From Microcaldota archaeon (GTDB lineage Archaea > Micrarchaeota > Micrarchaeia > Norongarragalinales > Norongarragalinaceae), in contig JACQQD010000012.1 in NCBI GenBank assembly GCA_016207165.1, positions 62,001 through 126,000 of the forward strand: DNA of 64,000 nucleotides, given 5' to 3'. The position numbers and the translations under genes are program-made. Positions 1,581 to 10,975 of the stretch are shown piece by piece (the first letter of the stretch is position 1; every line of letters begins with the position of its first letter). The notes beneath the pieces are model-generated. The model was not told the DNA's origin. It did no database searches and was given only the letters and a program-made list of their open reading frames with translations.

Positions 1581-2266
1581 GAATCGGCGGCTTCCAAAAG
1601 ACGACGCTGGTGGACTATCCCGGAAAAATCGCCTCGATCGTCTTTTTGTCGGGGTGCAACATGCGGTGCGGGTACTGCTACAATGCGCCGTTGGCCACAG
1701 GAAAACTGCCGGATTTAGGCGAGGAAAACGTTTTCCGCGAGATCTCTCAGAGAAAAAAGTACGTGGACGCCGTGGTCATCACCGGAGGCGAGCCCACGAT
1801 TTGGCCCGACCTGCCCCAACGCCTCCAACAACTCAAAAAAGAAGGGTTCCTGGTGAAGTTGGACACCAACGGCTTGAACCCCGAGAAACTCCGGCAAATC
1901 CTTGAATCCGGCGACGTGGACTTTGTCGCCATGGACGTCAAGGCGCCTTGGGCCAAGTACCAAGGCGTGTGCGGGGCCAGGCTTGACGAACGCCGCATCC
2001 ACGAAAGCATTGCCTTGCTTAAGCAAACCGGAGTGGACTACGAATTCCGAACCACCGTGGCACCCGGATTAACGCAGAACGATTTGCGCCGCATCGGCCA
2101 CATGCTTCTGCCGGCCAAGCGGTGGTTCCTGCAAGTGTTTCAGAAAACGGATTCCCTCATGGACCAAGGCGTCCTCACGCTTGCGGTCCTGACGCGGCAC
2201 CAAATCCATGACGTCGTCTTGGAATTCCAGGGAAGCTTCCAAGAATGCGCGCTTCGGGGCCCGTGA
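1577..2266 (+). CDS. nrdG: Anaerobic ribonucleotide reductase activating protein, radical SAM
   Basis: Generates the glycyl radical on NrdD using S-adenosylmethionine and a [4Fe-4S] cluster. The cluster motif CNMRCGYC (CxxxCxxC, Cys27/31/34) lies in the usual N-terminal position, followed by the SAM-binding GGEP at about residue 70. At 229 aa it has the length of the larger archaeal/bacterial NrdG-type activases (PflA/NrdG pyrimidine-RNR activator style), longer than E. coli NrdG. It overlaps the small radical-domain ORF by four bases, so its substrate is probably that peptide in complex with NrdD. Confidence 0.92.
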   Translation: MRIGGFQKTTLVDYPGKIASIVFLSGCNMRCGYCYNAPLATGKLPDLGEENVFREISQRKKYVDAVVITGGEPTIWPDLPQRLQQLKKEGFLVKLDTNGLNPEKLRQILESGDVDFVAMDVKAPWAKYQGVCGARLDERRIHESIALLKQTGVDYEFRTTVAPGLTQNDLRRIGHMLLPAKRWFLQVFQKTDSLMDQGVLTLAVLTRHQIHDVVLEFQGSFQECALRGP

Positions 2267-2270
2267 ACGC

Positions 2271-2278
2271 TTTTTAAG
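2271..2278 (+). promoter_or_regulatory. TATA box for the 2303 gene
   Basis: TTTTTAAG lies 25 bases before ATG 2303. It decides the start: the upstream in-frame ATG at 2279 would fall directly after the TATA box. Confidence 0.5.
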
Positions 2279-2302
2279 ATGGAATGCGTCATTGGACTGA
2301 CG

Positions 2303-3310
2303 ATGGCCAAACCCCACATTGCTTTCTTTGAACTGGAGCCATGGGAGAAAGGCTACTTCCAGAAAGCATTGACTGGATTCAACCTCCAATTCATTGACGG
2401 GCCTCTGAAACCCCAGGACATTTCCAAAGTCAAGGACGCCGACGCCATCGCCGCGTTCGTTTTCTCGAAATTCGACGCGGCCACCCTCAAAAAGCTCTCC
2501 AAACTCAAACTACTTTGCACCATGTCCACGGGCTTTGACCACGTGGACTTGAAAACCGCGAAAAAGCAAGGCGTCACCGTCTGCAACGTGCCGGAATACG
2601 GCTCGAACACCGTGGCCGAACACACGTTTGCCTTGCTGCTATCCATTTCCCGGAAAGTCCCGCAATCGCTTTCACGCATTCGGTTAAGCGATTTTTCGCG
2701 GGAAGGACTGCGGGGATTTGACTTGGCCGGAAAAACCATGGGCATCATCGGCATGGGCAAAATCGGCCGCCACGTGGCCCGCATCGCCCGCGGATTTGAA
2801 ATGAACGTGTTGGCCTGCGACCCGTTTCTGACGCAAAAAGAAGCCGAAATTTTATGCGTGGGCTGCGTGCCCCTCAAGAAACTGTTGTCCGAAAGCGACG
2901 TGATCACCCTCCACGCGCCCCTGACGGACAAGACACGCCACCTGATCAACACGCGAAACCTCAAACACGTCAAAAAAGGAGCCGTGCTCGTCAACACGTC
3001 GCGCGGCGCACTGGTTGAAACCCGCGCGCTTTTGGAAGGCCTCAAAAACGGCACTTTTTCGGCCTTGGGCTTGGATGTGTTGGAGGACGAAGGCGTCATC
3101 CAGGAAGAGAAAGCCTTGCTTCACCGCGCCTTTGCCGACAAAGTCAACTTGCGCCGCGTCCTAGAAGAACACGTGTTACTGGACTTGGAAAATGTGGTGG
3201 TCACGCCCCACAATGCCTTCAACAGCCAAGAGGCGCTGGAACGCATCCTGGACACCACGGCGGACAACATCAAGGCGTACTTCAAGAAAAAGCCCCGGAA
3301 CACCGTTTAA
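2303..3310 (+). CDS. D-isomer-specific 2-hydroxyacid dehydrogenase
   Basis: NAD(P)-dependent reduction of 2-oxoacids to D-2-hydroxyacids; the exact substrate (lactate, glyoxylate, phosphoglycerate) cannot be read from sequence. The 335-aa protein has the Rossmann motif GMGKIGRHVARIARG at about residue 150, the catalytic Arg in NTSRGALVE, the Glu in LDVLEDEG and the His in TPHNAF. The segment around ALLHRAFADKVNLRRVLEE resembles D-lactate-dehydrogenase-type members. It stands alone behind its own TATA box and no ACT domain follows, which argues against SerA. Confidence 0.88.
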   Translation: MAKPHIAFFELEPWEKGYFQKALTGFNLQFIDGPLKPQDISKVKDADAIAAFVFSKFDAATLKKLSKLKLLCTMSTGFDHVDLKTAKKQGVTVCNVPEYGSNTVAEHTFALLLSISRKVPQSLSRIRLSDFSREGLRGFDLAGKTMGIIGMGKIGRHVARIARGFEMNVLACDPFLTQKEAEILCVGCVPLKKLLSESDVITLHAPLTDKTRHLINTRNLKHVKKGAVLVNTSRGALVETRALLEGLKNGTFSALGLDVLEDEGVIQEEKALLHRAFADKVNLRRVLEEHVLLDLENVVVTPHNAFNSQEALERILDTTADNIKAYFKKKPRNTV

Positions 3311-3349
3311 ACGCAAACGCTTTAATCAGTCAACACCCGAAACAAGTCC

Positions 3350-3751
3350 ATGCACCTCGCCGTGTACGCCGGTAAAGAACCTGGAACATTAACCGCCCAC
3401 ATTCGGCCGCTCCAGAAAGTGCGGGCCCTGGAACGAGAAGTCAGCAAAAGCCGGGGAGAACTTAAGTTGGGCAACGAACTGAACAAGGTAAACATCACCG
3501 CAGCAAAGAAAAACGAGGAAGCAACCCGCGTCTTGCACTGGATACTGCAGCTAGTTGAAAACCACTTCGCCACGCAGGGACCCAACGCGGAAATCGGAGT
3601 CTTTTACGGTGGATTGGATTCGCACGAAAGCGAGCTTATTACCAGCATGATTCGAAACGCGAAATCCGCCGCCCAACTGGAAGAACAATTAAAGCGCGAG
3701 ACCACCAAGCCTACTGGAAAAGCGCAGGGCGGCTTTCGACTAATCAAATAA
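3350..3751 (+). CDS. Orphan protein, 133 aa (possible paralogue of 5320-5730)
   Basis: Not recognised. Soluble, no membrane segment, no Cys pair. Starts MHLAVYAGK and contains NHFATQGPNAEIG at residue 71 and GKAQGGF near the C-terminus. The same order and spacing (MHILVREGR, AHFRTNGPRAGIT at residue 70, AKIQGGL) is found in the protein at 5320-5730, so the two may be diverged copies of an unknown family. It converges with panC: stop and stop are adjacent at 3751/3752. Confidence 0.6.
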   Translation: MHLAVYAGKEPGTLTAHIRPLQKVRALEREVSKSRGELKLGNELNKVNITAAKKNEEATRVLHWILQLVENHFATQGPNAEIGVFYGGLDSHESELITSMIRNAKSAAQLEEQLKRETTKPTGKAQGGFRLIK

Positions 3752-7491: not shown

Positions 7492-7545
7492 GAAAAGTTT
7501 TTAACTCGTGATTTCAATTGTATTACAAAGTAAAGCGTGTTGGAT

Positions 7546-7860
7546 ATGGAATTGGTGACGATTTCAGCGCGAATCCCAAAAACGCTCAACGACGAGTTGG
7601 AGGCGTATGCCGAGCAGAACGGGTATGCCACCAAGACCGAAGTCTTGCGGGACTGGATTCGAAAGGAGTTGGCGATGCAAAGCGTGCGGGCCATGGCCGG
7701 GGCGTTAAAAGGAAAGGTCAAGAATCCGCCGAAATCGTTCTCCGCGTGGCGCAAGAAGCGGTGGGATGACGCGCTTGCAAAAGCAGGCGGGGACGAACAC
7801 CGAGCCGTCCAAATCCTGAGGCGGGAAGAAAAAGAAGCGTCAAAGGGTTTTCGATTCTAG
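7546..7860 (+). CDS. Ribbon-helix-helix antitoxin-like protein
   Basis: A 104-aa protein with an N-terminal RHH fold: VTISARIPKTLNDELEAYAEQN followed by a YATKTEVLRDWIRKEL helix. The basic C-terminal part (KNPPKSFSAWRKKRW) could be toxin-binding. It is convergent with, and overlaps by four bases, a PIN gene, rather than preceding it in an operon. ATG 7546 is chosen; GTG 7537 is also possible. Confidence 0.75.
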   Translation: MELVTISARIPKTLNDELEAYAEQNGYATKTEVLRDWIRKELAMQSVRAMAGALKGKVKNPPKSFSAWRKKRWDDALAKAGGDEHRAVQILRREEKEASKGFRF

Positions 7861-8282
7861 AGCCGGTCTAGGAATTCATTGAGCGACAACGATTTGCAAA
7901 AGGGCTTGGCCAACAACAAAAGCCGCCGGTCATTGCTTACCAGAACATCCAAGTGCTGACGGGCCAAGCAAACGTGCAGCCAATCATTCAAGCCCAGTTC
8001 ACCGGAAAACTGTTTGTTCAAGCGAATCGCCCAATCCAAGTCTGAACGCGTTTCTCGGAGCACAGACAATTTTCCTGCGCTCCGGAAGGAATCAAGGTGG
8101 TGCTGGAGCAGGAGCTTGGATTGCTCACCGCAGGCCAGTTGAATTTCTCTGAAACATATTTGAGAGGCGACAACCGAAAAACGACACGCAAGGCTCAATG
8201 CAAAGAATTGGTCAACCTGTTGCTCGTTTCGTTCTCCCAACAAATAGGCTACGTAAATGTTGGCATCTGGGTAAACCTTCAT
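7857..8282 (-). CDS. PIN-domain protein (VapC-like)
   Basis: A 141-aa PIN nuclease candidate: Asp6 in VYPDANIYVAYLLGE, Glu in CFREIQ, Asp in LGLNDWLHVCLA and Asp in VSNDRRLLLL. It lies tail to tail with an RHH protein, their stop codons overlapping in a CTAG palindrome at 7857-7860. A reverse-strand TATA (GTTTTTATGC, about 8322-8331) gives it its own promoter. The pairing with the RHH gene is an inference from position. Confidence 0.78.
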   Translation of the reverse strand: MKVYPDANIYVAYLLGERNEQQVDQFFALSLACRFSVVASQICFREIQLACGEQSKLLLQHHLDSFRSAGKLSVLRETRSDLDWAIRLNKQFSGELGLNDWLHVCLARQHLDVLVSNDRRLLLLAKPFCKSLSLNEFLDRL

Positions 8283-8361: not shown

Positions 8362-8766
8362 CTACAAAATGAAGGCGTGCACTTGCTTGACGCCCTTGGC
8401 TTTCTTGACTTCGTGGTACAAGGCTTTCAAGCGAGAGGCGTTTCCTTCCGCCATGAGCACCTGGATGCAGGCGTTCTGGCTTTGCTGGTGCACGCTGGTG
8501 GACACTTCATCCTCAAAATCGTGCAACACATGATCCACGTCGTGCTCGTGGTGCTTGTCGTGGGATACCACGAAAACCACTTTGTGAAACCCATCCAGTT
8601 CGTCGACGAGCTTGTATTCGTTCAAAAGAGCTTCCAAGCCGGCGCGCAACAATTTGGACCGGTTGGAAAAACCCAGTTTTTTCTGCATGGCGGAAAGCGC
8701 GGTGAGCTGGCCAGCTGGCAGGGAAATGCTGAGCACCTCGGAATTGGGTTTGTTAAGTTGGGCCAC
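8362..8766 (-). CDS. NikR-like metal-responsive repressor
   Basis: A 134-aa protein with an N-terminal RHH DNA-binding domain (SEVLSISLPAGQLTALSAMQ) and a C-terminal ACT-like metal domain. NikR uses three His and one Cys for nickel. Here His82, His93 and Cys100 are in matching places, but the fourth ligand position (second His of HxH) is Gln95, and an additional His-rich loop HDKHHEHDVDH is present at 69-79. It is divergent from a ZIP transporter, so it probably controls zinc or another divalent metal. Start is GTG 8766; the nearby ATG 8779 is out of frame. Confidence 0.8.
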   Translation of the reverse strand: MAQLNKPNSEVLSISLPAGQLTALSAMQKKLGFSNRSKLLRAGLEALLNEYKLVDELDGFHKVVFVVSHDKHHEHDVDHVLHDFEDEVSTSVHQQSQNACIQVLMAEGNASRLKALYHEVKKAKGVKQVHAFIL

Positions 8767-8781
8767 AAAAAACCACCATAA

Positions 8782-8810
8782 TTAATAATTTTATAACCAA
8801 TATTTATTAA
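8782..8810. promoter_or_regulatory. Shared divergent promoter with NikR-type inverted repeat
   Basis: TTAATAA (8782-8788) and TTATTAA (8804-8810) form an inverted repeat with half-site centres 22 bases apart, close to the geometry of NikR operators. It covers the TATA elements of both the repressor (minus) and ZIP (plus) genes, so repressor binding would shut both. Confidence 0.5.
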
Positions 8811-8832
8811 CCCCGCCTTGAATGGAATTGCC

Positions 8833-9600
8833 ATGGTTCTGGAGTACATCTTGGCTGGCACCGTGGCTGTGGGTCTGGTGTCGTTGCTCGGCACGCTGGC
8901 GTTCAAAATAGGGGAAAAGCACTTGGAGCGGCTATTGTTTGTTTCCGTGAGTTTTGCCACCGGCGCGCTCTTGGGCGCCGCGTTTTTGGATCTGTTGCCG
9001 GAAGCCCTGGAGCAAGTTCCTGTCGCAAGCGGGCTGCTCTTGGTGCTGGGCGGCGTCTTGGCTTTTTTCACGTTCGAGAAGTTTATGTGGCACCACCACC
9101 ATGCCAGCCACCACCCGGAAAAAGGCAAGGCCAAAGCCGCCAAGGAAAAACCGTTGGGCTACCTGACGCTGGCTGGCAGCCTGACGCACAATTTTTTCGA
9201 CGGCGTGGCCATTGCCGCCGCATTCTTGGTGGACGTCCCGTTGGGCATCGCCACCACGTTGGCCATTGCCCTGCACGAAATCCCGCACGAGTTGGGCGAC
9301 GTGGGCCTGTTATTGTACAGCGGGTTCTCGCTTCAAAGAGCCACGTTGTTCAACCTGGCTACCGGGTTGACATCGGTGGCCGGCGGCGTGGCCTTCTTTT
9401 TGTTCGCTCCACACGTAAGCCAACTGGAAGCATACGCGCTGGCGTTCACGGGCGGCACGTTCATTTACATTGCCGCGGCGGACTTGGTTCCGGAACTGCA
9501 CAAGGAACACCACGGCCTTCGTTCCGTTGCGCAATTGGCCTTCATTCTGTTGGGCGTCGGCGTGATCTGGACAGTCGGCGTGCTGTTGGGGCACAGCTGA
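8833..9600 (+). CDS. ZIP-family divalent metal transporter
   Basis: A 255-aa membrane protein with about seven or eight helices. It has the two ZIP signature helices, LTHNFFDGVAIAAAF (TM4) and ALHEIPHELGDVGLLLYSG (TM5), which form the binuclear metal site, and a His-rich cytoplasmic loop MWHHHHASHHPEKGK. It imports zinc or a related divalent cation. ATG 8833 is chosen because it lies about 25 bases after the TATTTATT element; TTG 8818 is less likely. Adjacent NikR-like gene suggests metal-dependent regulation. Confidence 0.9.
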   Translation: MVLEYILAGTVAVGLVSLLGTLAFKIGEKHLERLLFVSVSFATGALLGAAFLDLLPEALEQVPVASGLLLVLGGVLAFFTFEKFMWHHHHASHHPEKGKAKAAKEKPLGYLTLAGSLTHNFFDGVAIAAAFLVDVPLGIATTLAIALHEIPHELGDVGLLLYSGFSLQRATLFNLATGLTSVAGGVAFFLFAPHVSQLEAYALAFTGGTFIYIAAADLVPELHKEHHGLRSVAQLAFILLGVGVIWTVGVLLGHS

Positions 9601-9660: not shown

Positions 9661-10257
9661 ATGAAACCCTTGAACGACGAGTTGTTGTGGAAAGGCGCGC
9701 CTTTCCTGGTCTTCGCCGCCTTCCTGGCGTTCTACGCTCTGACGCAGCCGTCGATTTCCTCCACCCGCATCTTCAGCAAGGCGTTTGCCGCCTCGGCGGT
9801 GATCGTGTTGAGCGCCAGCATCGGAATGACGGGGGTTGCCAAGGTTTGGCCGAAACACCGAAAAGGACTGGAACACCGAAAAAGCTGGGGAGTGGTCGGA
9901 TTTGTTTTTGCTTTTTCGCACGCCGCATTGGCGTTTTCCGACCCGCTCCTGTTTTTGCCGGAACTGGCGTCGTCACGGCAGAACGTGCGCATCGGGTTGA
10001 TGGCGTTGGTGATTTTTGCGGCGTTGGCCGTGACTTCCACGCGCTTCGCGGAAAAGGCGCTGGGAAAAAACTGGAAGAGAATCCAGCGCGCCGGATACGT
10101 GGCCTTGGCGCTCGTGTTAGCGGATGTGTTGGTGCTTGGAGACGGCACATTCGTGAAAACGCCGATCGGATTGGTGCTGGCGTTTGCGGCGTTGGGCGGC
10201 CTGGTGCTGGGCGTGCGCGGCTGGTTCGAAAGGGACCGTGGTTTTCGCGAGCTTTAA
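9661..10257 (+). CDS. Ferric-reductase-like membrane protein, degenerate heme ligands
   Basis: A 198-aa protein with six predicted helices resembling the ferric-reductase-like/MsrQ transmembrane domain. It is a paralogue of the next gene: the blocks LEHRKSWGVVGFVFAFSHA and KNWKRIQRAGYVALAL align with KSYRKALGLYGFLMAAGHV and LWKRIQLVGYAALLL. Only one intramembrane His (His87) is kept; the positions of the partner's His46 and His153 are not His here. It may be a non-heme subunit of a dimer. No NAD or flavin domain is present. Confidence 0.65.
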   Translation: MKPLNDELLWKGAPFLVFAAFLAFYALTQPSISSTRIFSKAFAASAVIVLSASIGMTGVAKVWPKHRKGLEHRKSWGVVGFVFAFSHAALAFSDPLLFLPELASSRQNVRIGLMALVIFAALAVTSTRFAEKALGKNWKRIQRAGYVALALVLADVLVLGDGTFVKTPIGLVLAFAALGGLVLGVRGWFERDRGFREL

Positions 10258-10282
10258 ATGCCGGGAACGCATCCAGTGTATT

Positions 10283-10975
10283 ATGCCGCAAACCCAGTAC
10301 GTCGAGAAAACCAAGTGGTGGGGGGCTCTTGGAATCGCGATTGCCACGTTCTTGGCGTTGTACTTGTACTTTGACGCGGGCTTGGACCCCAAATTGTTGA
10401 ACAAGGTCTACGCGCTTCACGCCGCAACACTCTTGACCCTGACGTTTCTGATCGGTTCCCTCTCGCGTTTCTGGCCGAAAATATTCAACCGCTATAAGTC
10501 GTACCGGAAAGCCTTGGGCCTGTACGGTTTTCTGATGGCCGCCGGCCACGTGTACACCGTTCTGGTACCCTTGGGCAAAAGCCCCAGCGGCTACCAGGCG
10601 TTGGCGGGGTGGGCCGCGTTCGCCGTGTTTTTGGTCATGGCAATCACGTCGAATGCGAAGACCGCCAAGCGATTGGGGTACGGGTTGTGGAAACGCATCC
10701 AATTGGTTGGCTACGCCGCCTTGTTGCTGGTGGGCGTCCACTTTTTTCTCGTGGAAACAAGAACCGGTGTTTTGAACCTCAACAGCATGCAAATCGTGGT
10801 GCTGGCCTTGGTTTTGTTGGCCGTGGTTTTGCGCATCGCCGCGTTCATAGCCGGCCCGCGTCAAAAGTTCACTTCGTACTACGACCACTTCAACGGCGAG
10901 GACGGAGAAGCACCCAACGTCAAGCCCACCGCTGGAAAAACAGCGAAAAAGAAAACCAGAAAAAAGAAGCCCTAA
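10283..10975 (+). CDS. Ferric-reductase-like transmembrane heme protein
   Basis: A 230-aa membrane protein, about six helices, of the ferric-reductase-like/MsrQ type. His46 (YALHAATLL), His89 (AAGHVYTV) and His153 (VGVHFFLV) lie in different helices and could hold heme b. The C-terminal tail is Lys-rich and cytoplasmic (TAKKKTRKKKP). ATG 10283 follows the preceding gene by 25 bases, so the two are probably one transcript. Likely role: passing electrons across the membrane, perhaps to the extracytoplasmic thiol enzymes encoded next door; this is inference. Confidence 0.68.
   Translation: MPQTQYVEKTKWWGALGIAIATFLALYLYFDAGLDPKLLNKVYALHAATLLTLTFLIGSLSRFWPKIFNRYKSYRKALGLYGFLMAAGHVYTVLVPLGKSPSGYQALAGWAAFAVFLVMAITSNAKTAKRLGYGLWKRIQLVGYAALLLVGVHFFLVETRTGVLNLNSMQIVVLALVLLAVVLRIAAFIAGPRQKFTSYYDHFNGEDGEAPNVKPTAGKTAKKKTRKKKP

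What the first reader, a model, noticed from the sequence alone, without database searches (positions are those of the whole stretch)
8362..9600. NikR-like regulator with a changed metal ligand, divergent from a ZIP transporter and sharing a NikR-geometry operator
The nickel site has one His replaced by Gln95 and an additional His-rich loop, and the target gene is a ZIP transporter. TTAATAA and TTATTAA half-sites with centres 22 bases apart cover both promoters. This suggests a NikR-derived zinc (or other metal) uptake switch.
Basis: partly seen in the sequence, partly recalled or inferred. Interest (0 to 1): 0.6.

Follow-up and report, generated by a model that had tools for sequence, protein, structure and literature searches.

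The report
NikR-like zinc-uptake switch in Micrarchaeota
In this uncultivated tiny archaeon, a protein of the nickel-sensor (NikR) fold most likely switches a zinc importer gene on and off through a DNA site that recurs with the same kind of regulator in dozens of related genomes, so a known sensor fold seems to have been turned to another metal across a whole phylum.

Summary
Window 8362-8766 (-) encodes a ribbon-helix-helix/NikR_C protein, divergent from a ZIP transporter (8833-9600 +). Between them lie TTAATAA (8782-8788) and TTATTAA (8804-8810), exactly 22 bp apart: the only exact copy in the 1.27-Mb genome.

Relatives occur in 95 of 295 genomes of the same phylum (Micrarchaeota) and form a clade apart from five canonical NikRs. 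They sit beside one of three importers: ZIP (about 26), ZnuA-ZnuC (17), or an unannotated "HGxTPDEHTWPITFSYA" membrane protein (25), exchanged repeatedly across the tree. The 22-bp operator occurs in 57 of 86 upstream regions (shuffles: 0.015) and in 76/94 genomes with the regulator but 18/196 without (odds ratio 42). In several genomes it lies in trans before ZIP, ZnuA, CbiM or the new importer.

Its reasoning is not: Gln95 does replace one ligand, but ZIP-linked relatives often keep all four NikR ligands, so the substitution does not mark the change of target, and the "His-rich loop" is a non-conserved helix start. Zinc is the best guess; no metal was measured.

The parts
8362..8766 (-). NikR-like metal-responsive repressor, 134 aa (GTG start; SD-like GGTGG on the minus strand at 8777-8773)
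   Evidence: Pfam NikR_C 9.1e-9; AlphaFold model pLDDT 91; best PDB match HpNikR-DNA complex 6mrj, E 1.7e-9
8611..8733 (-). ribbon-helix-helix DNA-binding domain (residues 12-52)
   Evidence: RHH_3 0.014, below cut-off; fold match to full-length NikR; S13 and S15 of the DNA-contact strand in 85/87 relatives, with Ile/Val where EcNikR has Arg3
8377..8562 (-). NikR_C (ACT-like) metal-sensing domain, residues 69-130
   Evidence: PF08753 9.1e-9; NikR C-terminal domains aligned at about 1.2-2 angstrom rmsd
8521..8523 (-). His82, equivalent of EcNikR His76
   Evidence: alignment; His in 78/87 relatives
8488..8490 (-). His93, equivalent of EcNikR His87
   Evidence: invariant, 87/87
8482..8484 (-). 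Gln95, at the position of EcNikR His89
   Evidence: His in 63/87, Gln only in the three genomes of this genus
8467..8469 (-). Cys100, equivalent of EcNikR Cys95
   Evidence: Cys in 73/87 relatives
8782..8810 (.). operator TTAATAA-N15-TTATTAA (two near-palindromic TTAWTAA half-sites 22 bp apart)
8799..8810 (+). AATATTTATTAA: candidate TATA element of the ZIP promoter overlapping the right half-site; 22 bp lie between it and the ATG
   Evidence: position relative to ATG 8833, similar distance (21-23 bp) in several relatives; TATA role inferred
8789..8796 (-). TTATAAAA: candidate TATA element of the regulator gene inside the operator spacer
   Evidence: sequence only; inferred
8833..9600 (+). ZIP metal importer, 255 aa
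   Evidence: Pfam Zip 3.1e-41; BbZIP structures 1.8e-7
9187..9204 (+). HNFFDG (from His119), TM4 metal-site motif of ZIP
   Evidence: read from the translation; aligned with BbZIP HNLPEG
9274..9300 (+). HEIPHELGD (from His148), TM5 metal-site motif of the LIV-1 type
   Evidence: read from the translation; subfamily assignment from knowledge

Best explanation
The pair is a metal-uptake switch, most likely for zinc. The NikR-like protein forms a tetramer whose C-terminal domains bind the metal through His82', His93 and Cys100, with Gln95, water or another residue as fourth ligand. When loaded, its two ribbon-helix-helix dimers bind TTAATAA and TTATTAA 22 bp apart. The site overlaps the TATA region of the ZIP gene and lies beside the regulator's own start, so binding blocks basal transcription factors and turns off both the importer and the regulator. 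When the metal is scarce the protein lets go and ZIP is made. Shown here by computation: gene pair, fold, operator, and their conservation in cis, in trans and by co-occurrence across Micrarchaeota. Inferred: tetramer, metal-dependent repression, TATA occlusion, zinc.
For: Fold and domains are those of NikR. Divergent or co-directional ZIP in about 27 of 87 family members. Other members sit beside ZnuA-ZnuC (17; Pfam ZnuA up to 8e-86) or a new membrane protein (25); the labels need at least 7 to 9 changes each across starred branches of the regulator tree, e.g. sisters L056 (ZnuA) and L065 (ZIP), so one regulator type controls alternative importers. Of the ZnuA proteins whose site is covered, 11 of 16 have the three-His (zinc-type) ligand set. 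Operator: 57/86 upstream regions against 0.015 in shuffles; 58/68 loci with an adjacent importer within 450 bp; genome co-occurrence odds ratio 42, p 1e-34, reversed control 0.8. In trans, the operator precedes ZIP (G184), ZnuA-ZnuC (G179, G084), the new importer (G025) and CbiM (G023, G183) away from the regulator. Own genome: single exact operator; no ZnuA, CbiM, NicO, NiFe hydrogenase, prismane/CODH, or Fur-family protein above cut-off. The ZIP has the HNxxD...HExxH motifs known from zinc-transporting LIV-1 ZIPs (knowledge).
Against: No metal binding, DNA binding or expression was measured. ZIP and ZnuA-family importers can also carry Mn, Fe or Co; 5 of 16 ZnuA homologues have Glu as third ligand. 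CbiM (Ni/Co) and FeoB (Fe) neighbours appear in a few genomes. Nine of 26 ZIP-linked regulators keep the full NikR His3Cys set, which favours nickel in characterised NikRs. The genome is about 90% complete.
Confidence: 0.7

Rival explanations
1. The protein is an ordinary nickel sensor and the ZIP and other partners import nickel or cobalt; the operator differs only by drift.
For: NikR fold; most relatives keep His3Cys; CbiM is a target in three lineages; in a Thermoplasmata MAG the canonical-looking NikR lies divergent from a NiCoT-like gene.
Against: No NiFe hydrogenase, CODH/prismane, CbiM or NicO homologue found in this genome; 66 of 94 regulator-bearing genomes lack a clear NiFe hydrogenase homologue and the association is weak; ZnuA-ZnuC and ZIP dominate as identifiable partners.
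Confidence: 0.14
2. It senses manganese or iron and represses a broad-range ZIP.
For: ZIP and A-1 ABC importers include Mn/Fe carriers (knowledge); FeoB beside the operator in G023 and near it in G184; 5/16 ZnuA homologues with a Glu third ligand.
Against: Cys/His ligands suit Zn, Ni, Co better than Mn or Fe; 11/16 ZnuA homologues are three-His; the ZIP metal-site motifs are LIV-1 type.
Confidence: 0.12
3. The A/T-rich half-sites are only TATA elements of two back-to-back promoters, not an operator.
For: The right half-site overlaps the expected TATA position of ZIP; the intergenic region is 29% G+C in a 56% G+C window.
Against: The fixed 22-bp spacing (62 pairs against at most 21 at any other spacing), conservation across families, and co-occurrence of site and regulator genome by genome, with the reversed pattern showing none.
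Confidence: 0.04

Closest known systems
NikR (E. coli, H. pylori, P. horikoshii)
   Same: RHH + NikR_C architecture and fold, His/His/Cys ligand positions, two half-sites about two helical turns apart, importer as target
   Different: Gln at the third His position here; Ile/Val instead of EcNikR Arg3; operator TTAWTAA-N15-TTAWTAA, not GTATGAT or GTGTTAC (PMC545781); targets ZIP, ZnuA-ZnuC and a new importer; separate clade in a tree with five canonical NikRs
Zur (Fur family) zinc uptake regulator
   Same: predicted role: repress high-affinity zinc importers when zinc is sufficient
   Different: unrelated fold (winged helix); no Fur-family protein above cut-off in this genome
NikR-NiCoT / NikR-NikMNQO gene pairs
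   Same: regulator divergent from, or near, its importer (PMC545781, PMC2667541)
   Different: nickel/cobalt importers there; zinc-type importers here
BbZIP / LIV-1 type ZIP transporters
   Same: Pfam Zip fold and TM4/TM5 metal-site motifs
   Different: regulated here by a NikR-fold protein

Membership tests
NikR (nickel-responsive regulator) | N-terminal RHH and C-terminal NikR_C domain in one about 130-aa protein | tested here: met
   (RHH below the Pfam cut-off, fold clear)
NikR (nickel-responsive regulator) | His3Cys high-affinity nickel site | tested here: not met
   three of four: His82, His93, Cys100 kept, the His89 position is Gln95
NikR (nickel-responsive regulator) | curated NCBIfam NikR score cut-off | tested here: not met
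   best 57.6 bits against 111
NikR (nickel-responsive regulator) | groups with characterised NikRs in a tree | tested here: not met
   separate from E. coli, H. pylori, P. horikoshii and Thermoplasmata-type NikRs, split support 100/99; long branches, few reference sequences
NikR (nickel-responsive regulator) | two-half-site operator with about 20-22 bp spacing | tested here: met
   22 bp; the half-site sequence differs
NikR (nickel-responsive regulator) | targets nickel importers or nickel enzymes | tested here: not met
   target is ZIP; no NiFe hydrogenase, CODH/prismane, CbiM or NicO homologue found in the genome
NikR (nickel-responsive regulator) | nickel-activated DNA binding | not testable with these tools
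   needs protein
ZIP (SLC39) transporter | Pfam Zip above cut-off with TM4 HN and TM5 HE metal-site motifs | tested here: met
   142 bits against 35.1; HNFFDG and HEIPHELGD
Zur (Fur family) | Fur winged-helix domain | tested here: not met
   the regulator matches NikR_C and RHH only

The most novel reading that the evidence does not exclude
Across Micrarchaeota a clade of NikR-fold repressors with its own operator (TTAWTAA-N15-TTAWTAA) does the work of Zur, controlling interchangeable zinc importers: ZIP, ZnuABC and a so far unannotated membrane family with the signature HGxTPDEHTWPITFSYA, which would be a new class of zinc importer.
Probability: 0.5. Interest if true: 0.72.

Novelty: new variant of a known kind. 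Interest (0 to 1): 0.62.

Why it matters
Eight searches of the paper library (NikR with zinc, ZIP, archaea, DPANN or ribbon-helix-helix; Micrarchaeota with zinc; archaeal zinc-uptake regulation) showed no paper, by title or abstract, that describes a NikR-family protein controlling ZIP or ZnuABC; most subscription papers are not in that library. If right, the nickel-sensor fold has been re-targeted in both operator sequence and metal, giving a natural series (HHHC, HHQC, HHNC, HHDC, HHHG) for studying how a sensor's metal choice evolves. It also supplies an exact, testable operator that predicts regulon members from sequence alone in uncultivated DPANN archaea, and it points to a new importer family.

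Tried and rejected
Gln95 as the cause of the metal switch: rejected, because ligand type does not follow partner type. The His-rich loop as a conserved extra site: rejected. Chance A/T-rich repeats: rejected. A wider regulon in this genome: two-mismatch sites are as many as for the reversed control (6 against 6). The third importer as a NiCoT homologue: no similarity by profile comparison with one NiCoT-like protein, no Pfam or NCBIfam family above cut-off, and its structure model was too poor to use (pLDDT 46). A 20-sequence alignment was too divergent for the genome-contig scan; a closer six-sequence alignment worked. Operators that first seemed missing in L008, L012, L019 and L043 lie upstream of a small ORF. 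Some non-adjacent operator matches (G223 two, G275 two, G148) have no recognised transporter beside them and may be chance.

Full report
What is there. The minus strand at 8362-8766 encodes 134 aa that match Pfam NikR_C (9.1e-9) with a weak RHH_3 match; NCBIfam NikR models align over the whole length but far below their cut-offs (57.6 bits against 111). An AlphaFold model from 18 sequences has mean pLDDT 91, and its best solved match is the H. pylori NikR-DNA complex 6mrj (E 1.7e-9), with NikR C-terminal domains superposing at about 1.2-2 angstrom. The divergent gene 8833-9600 is a ZIP transporter (Pfam 3.1e-41; BbZIP structures 1.8e-7) with HNFFDG and HEIPHELGD metal-site motifs.

Ligands. 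In an alignment of 87 family members with E. coli NikR, His82, His93 and Cys100 stand at EcNikR His76, His87 and Cys95, and Gln95 at His89. The alignment needs a one-residue shorter loop before the Cys; relatives without that gap (L039, L040, L042) fix the register. But His93 is invariant, His82 is kept in 78 and Cys100 in 73, while the Gln95 position is His in 63 and N, D, Q, S, K, E, Y or V in the rest. ZIP-linked regulators have HHHC (9 of 26), HHNC (4), HHQC (3) and others, and ZnuA-linked ones are similar. So the substitution does not track the target. The His cluster at 69-79 lies at the end of a strand and start of a helix in the model and is not conserved.

The family. A search of 295 genomes of the same phylum gives relatives in 95. 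Named relatives in GTDB genomes are nearly all Candidatus Micrarchaeota, with more distant, canonical-looking NikRs in Thermoplasmata-type MAGs. In a tree the micrarchaeal proteins separate from E. coli, H. pylori, P. horikoshii and Thermoplasmata-type NikRs (100/99), with the caution that some branches are long and columns few. The DNA-contact strand carries Ser13 and Ser15 in 85/87 and Ile/Val where E. coli NikR has Arg3, which fits a changed operator (inference).

The partners. Beside the regulator are ZIP (about 26), a ZnuA-type binding protein, usually followed by a ZnuC-type ATPase (17), or a membrane protein with the signature HGxTPDEHTWPITFSYA (25); a CbiM-like gene occurs once (L093) and a downstream ZIP once (L057). 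ZnuA and the ABC ATPase are confirmed by Pfam; the third family matches no Pfam or NCBIfam model above cut-off. Each partner label needs at least 7 to 9 changes forced by well-supported branches, and close sisters differ (L056 ZnuA, L065 ZIP). Exchange of two classical zinc importers, and of the third family, under one regulator type suggests that all three carry the same metal. Eleven of 16 ZnuA proteins with the site covered have the three-His (zinc-type) ligands, five have Glu (the meaning of the ligand sets is from knowledge).

The operator. TTAWTAA pairs at 22 bp occur in 57 of 86 upstream regions against a mean of 0.015 and a maximum of 1 in 200 dinucleotide shuffles; 22 bp is by far the commonest spacing (62 pairs; next 21). 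With 450 bp examined, 58 of 68 regulators beside an importer have it, against 5 of 19 without such a neighbour. Across 290 genomes the exact operator is present in 76 of 94 with the regulator and 18 of 196 without it (odds ratio 42, p 1e-34), while the reversed control pattern shows none of this (0.8). These counts treat related genomes as independent, so the p-value is overstated, but the contrast with the control is not explained by base composition. In trans, the operator lies before the new importer (G025), ZnuA-ZnuC (G179, G084), CbiM with FeoB alongside (G023), CbiM (G183) and ZIP (G184), away from the regulator gene. Five further non-adjacent matches have no recognised transporter. In the window's genome it is unique.

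Promoter geometry. The operator's ZIP-side edge is separated from the ZIP start codon by 22 bp in the window and by 21-23 bp in several relatives, which puts AATATTTATTAA where the TATA element of a leaderless archaeal transcript would lie. A TTATAAAA facing the regulator lies in the spacer. Occlusion of TBP/TFB at both promoters is the simplest reading; transcription starts are not known.

Which metal. The genome, about 90% complete, shows no NiFe hydrogenase, prismane/CODH, CbiM, NicO or ZnuA homologue, and only a sub-threshold Fur hit. A second ZIP gene lies about 2.4 kb beyond the right end of the window and has no exact operator. NiFe hydrogenase homologues are in only 28 of 94 regulator-bearing genomes. 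Zinc is favoured by ZIP plus ZnuA; Ni/Co by CbiM and by the retained His3Cys in many relatives; Fe by two FeoB neighbours. HpNikR itself binds zinc tightly but responds poorly to it (PMC7949043), so the allostery must differ if zinc is the cognate metal.

Compared with what is known. Known NikR operators are GTATGAT or GTGTTAC repeats and known targets are nickel/cobalt importers or nickel enzymes (PMC545781, PMC2667541). Eight library searches turned up no NikR-family zinc regulator, though most subscription papers are not held. By the tests made it works like NikR in architecture and geometry, and like Zur in predicted role, but fails the His3Cys, curated-score, tree and target tests for being a NikR in the strict sense. 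Verdict: a real, conserved and probably undescribed variant of the NikR kind; zinc specificity about 0.65.

Noticed in passing
L161:2817-3893 (-), L130:1963-2910 (-), L142:2854-3810 (+) and other loci: Unannotated polytopic membrane protein family (HGxTPDEHTWPITFSYA signature, weak LysE similarity) recurring beside the regulator in 25 loci; candidate new metal importer.
   Followed up: partly
L008, L009, L012, L019, L043, between operator and regulator gene: A conserved ORF of about 50 codons (KKGNESLAIG...CPxC...NGxREKL) sits between operator and regulator in several genomes and is probably co-transcribed.
   Followed up: partly
window 7857-8282 (-); also downstream of the regulator in L034 and L035: A PIN-domain gene lies just downstream of the regulator on the same strand and keeps this place in three genomes of the genus; a small ORF with a CopG/VapB-like start (7537-7860 +, no Pfam match) converges on it.
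   Followed up: no
window 9661-10975 (+): Two neighbouring membrane ORFs after ZIP; the first (9661-10257) matches Ferric_reduct (2.5e-7) and, below cut-off, MsrQ heme-binding subunits.
   Followed up: no
G084:C14:19171-19311 (-): A broken regulator copy (one TAG, only the N-terminal part matches) lies beside an operator that faces ZnuA-ZnuC; an intact regulator is elsewhere in the genome.
   Followed up: no
L164, about 3322-3735 (+) and 2130-3377 (-): Thermoplasmata MAG: canonical-looking NikR divergent from a NiCoT-like gene, with GTAACAC-type repeats in between; an outgroup arrangement for comparison.
   Followed up: partly
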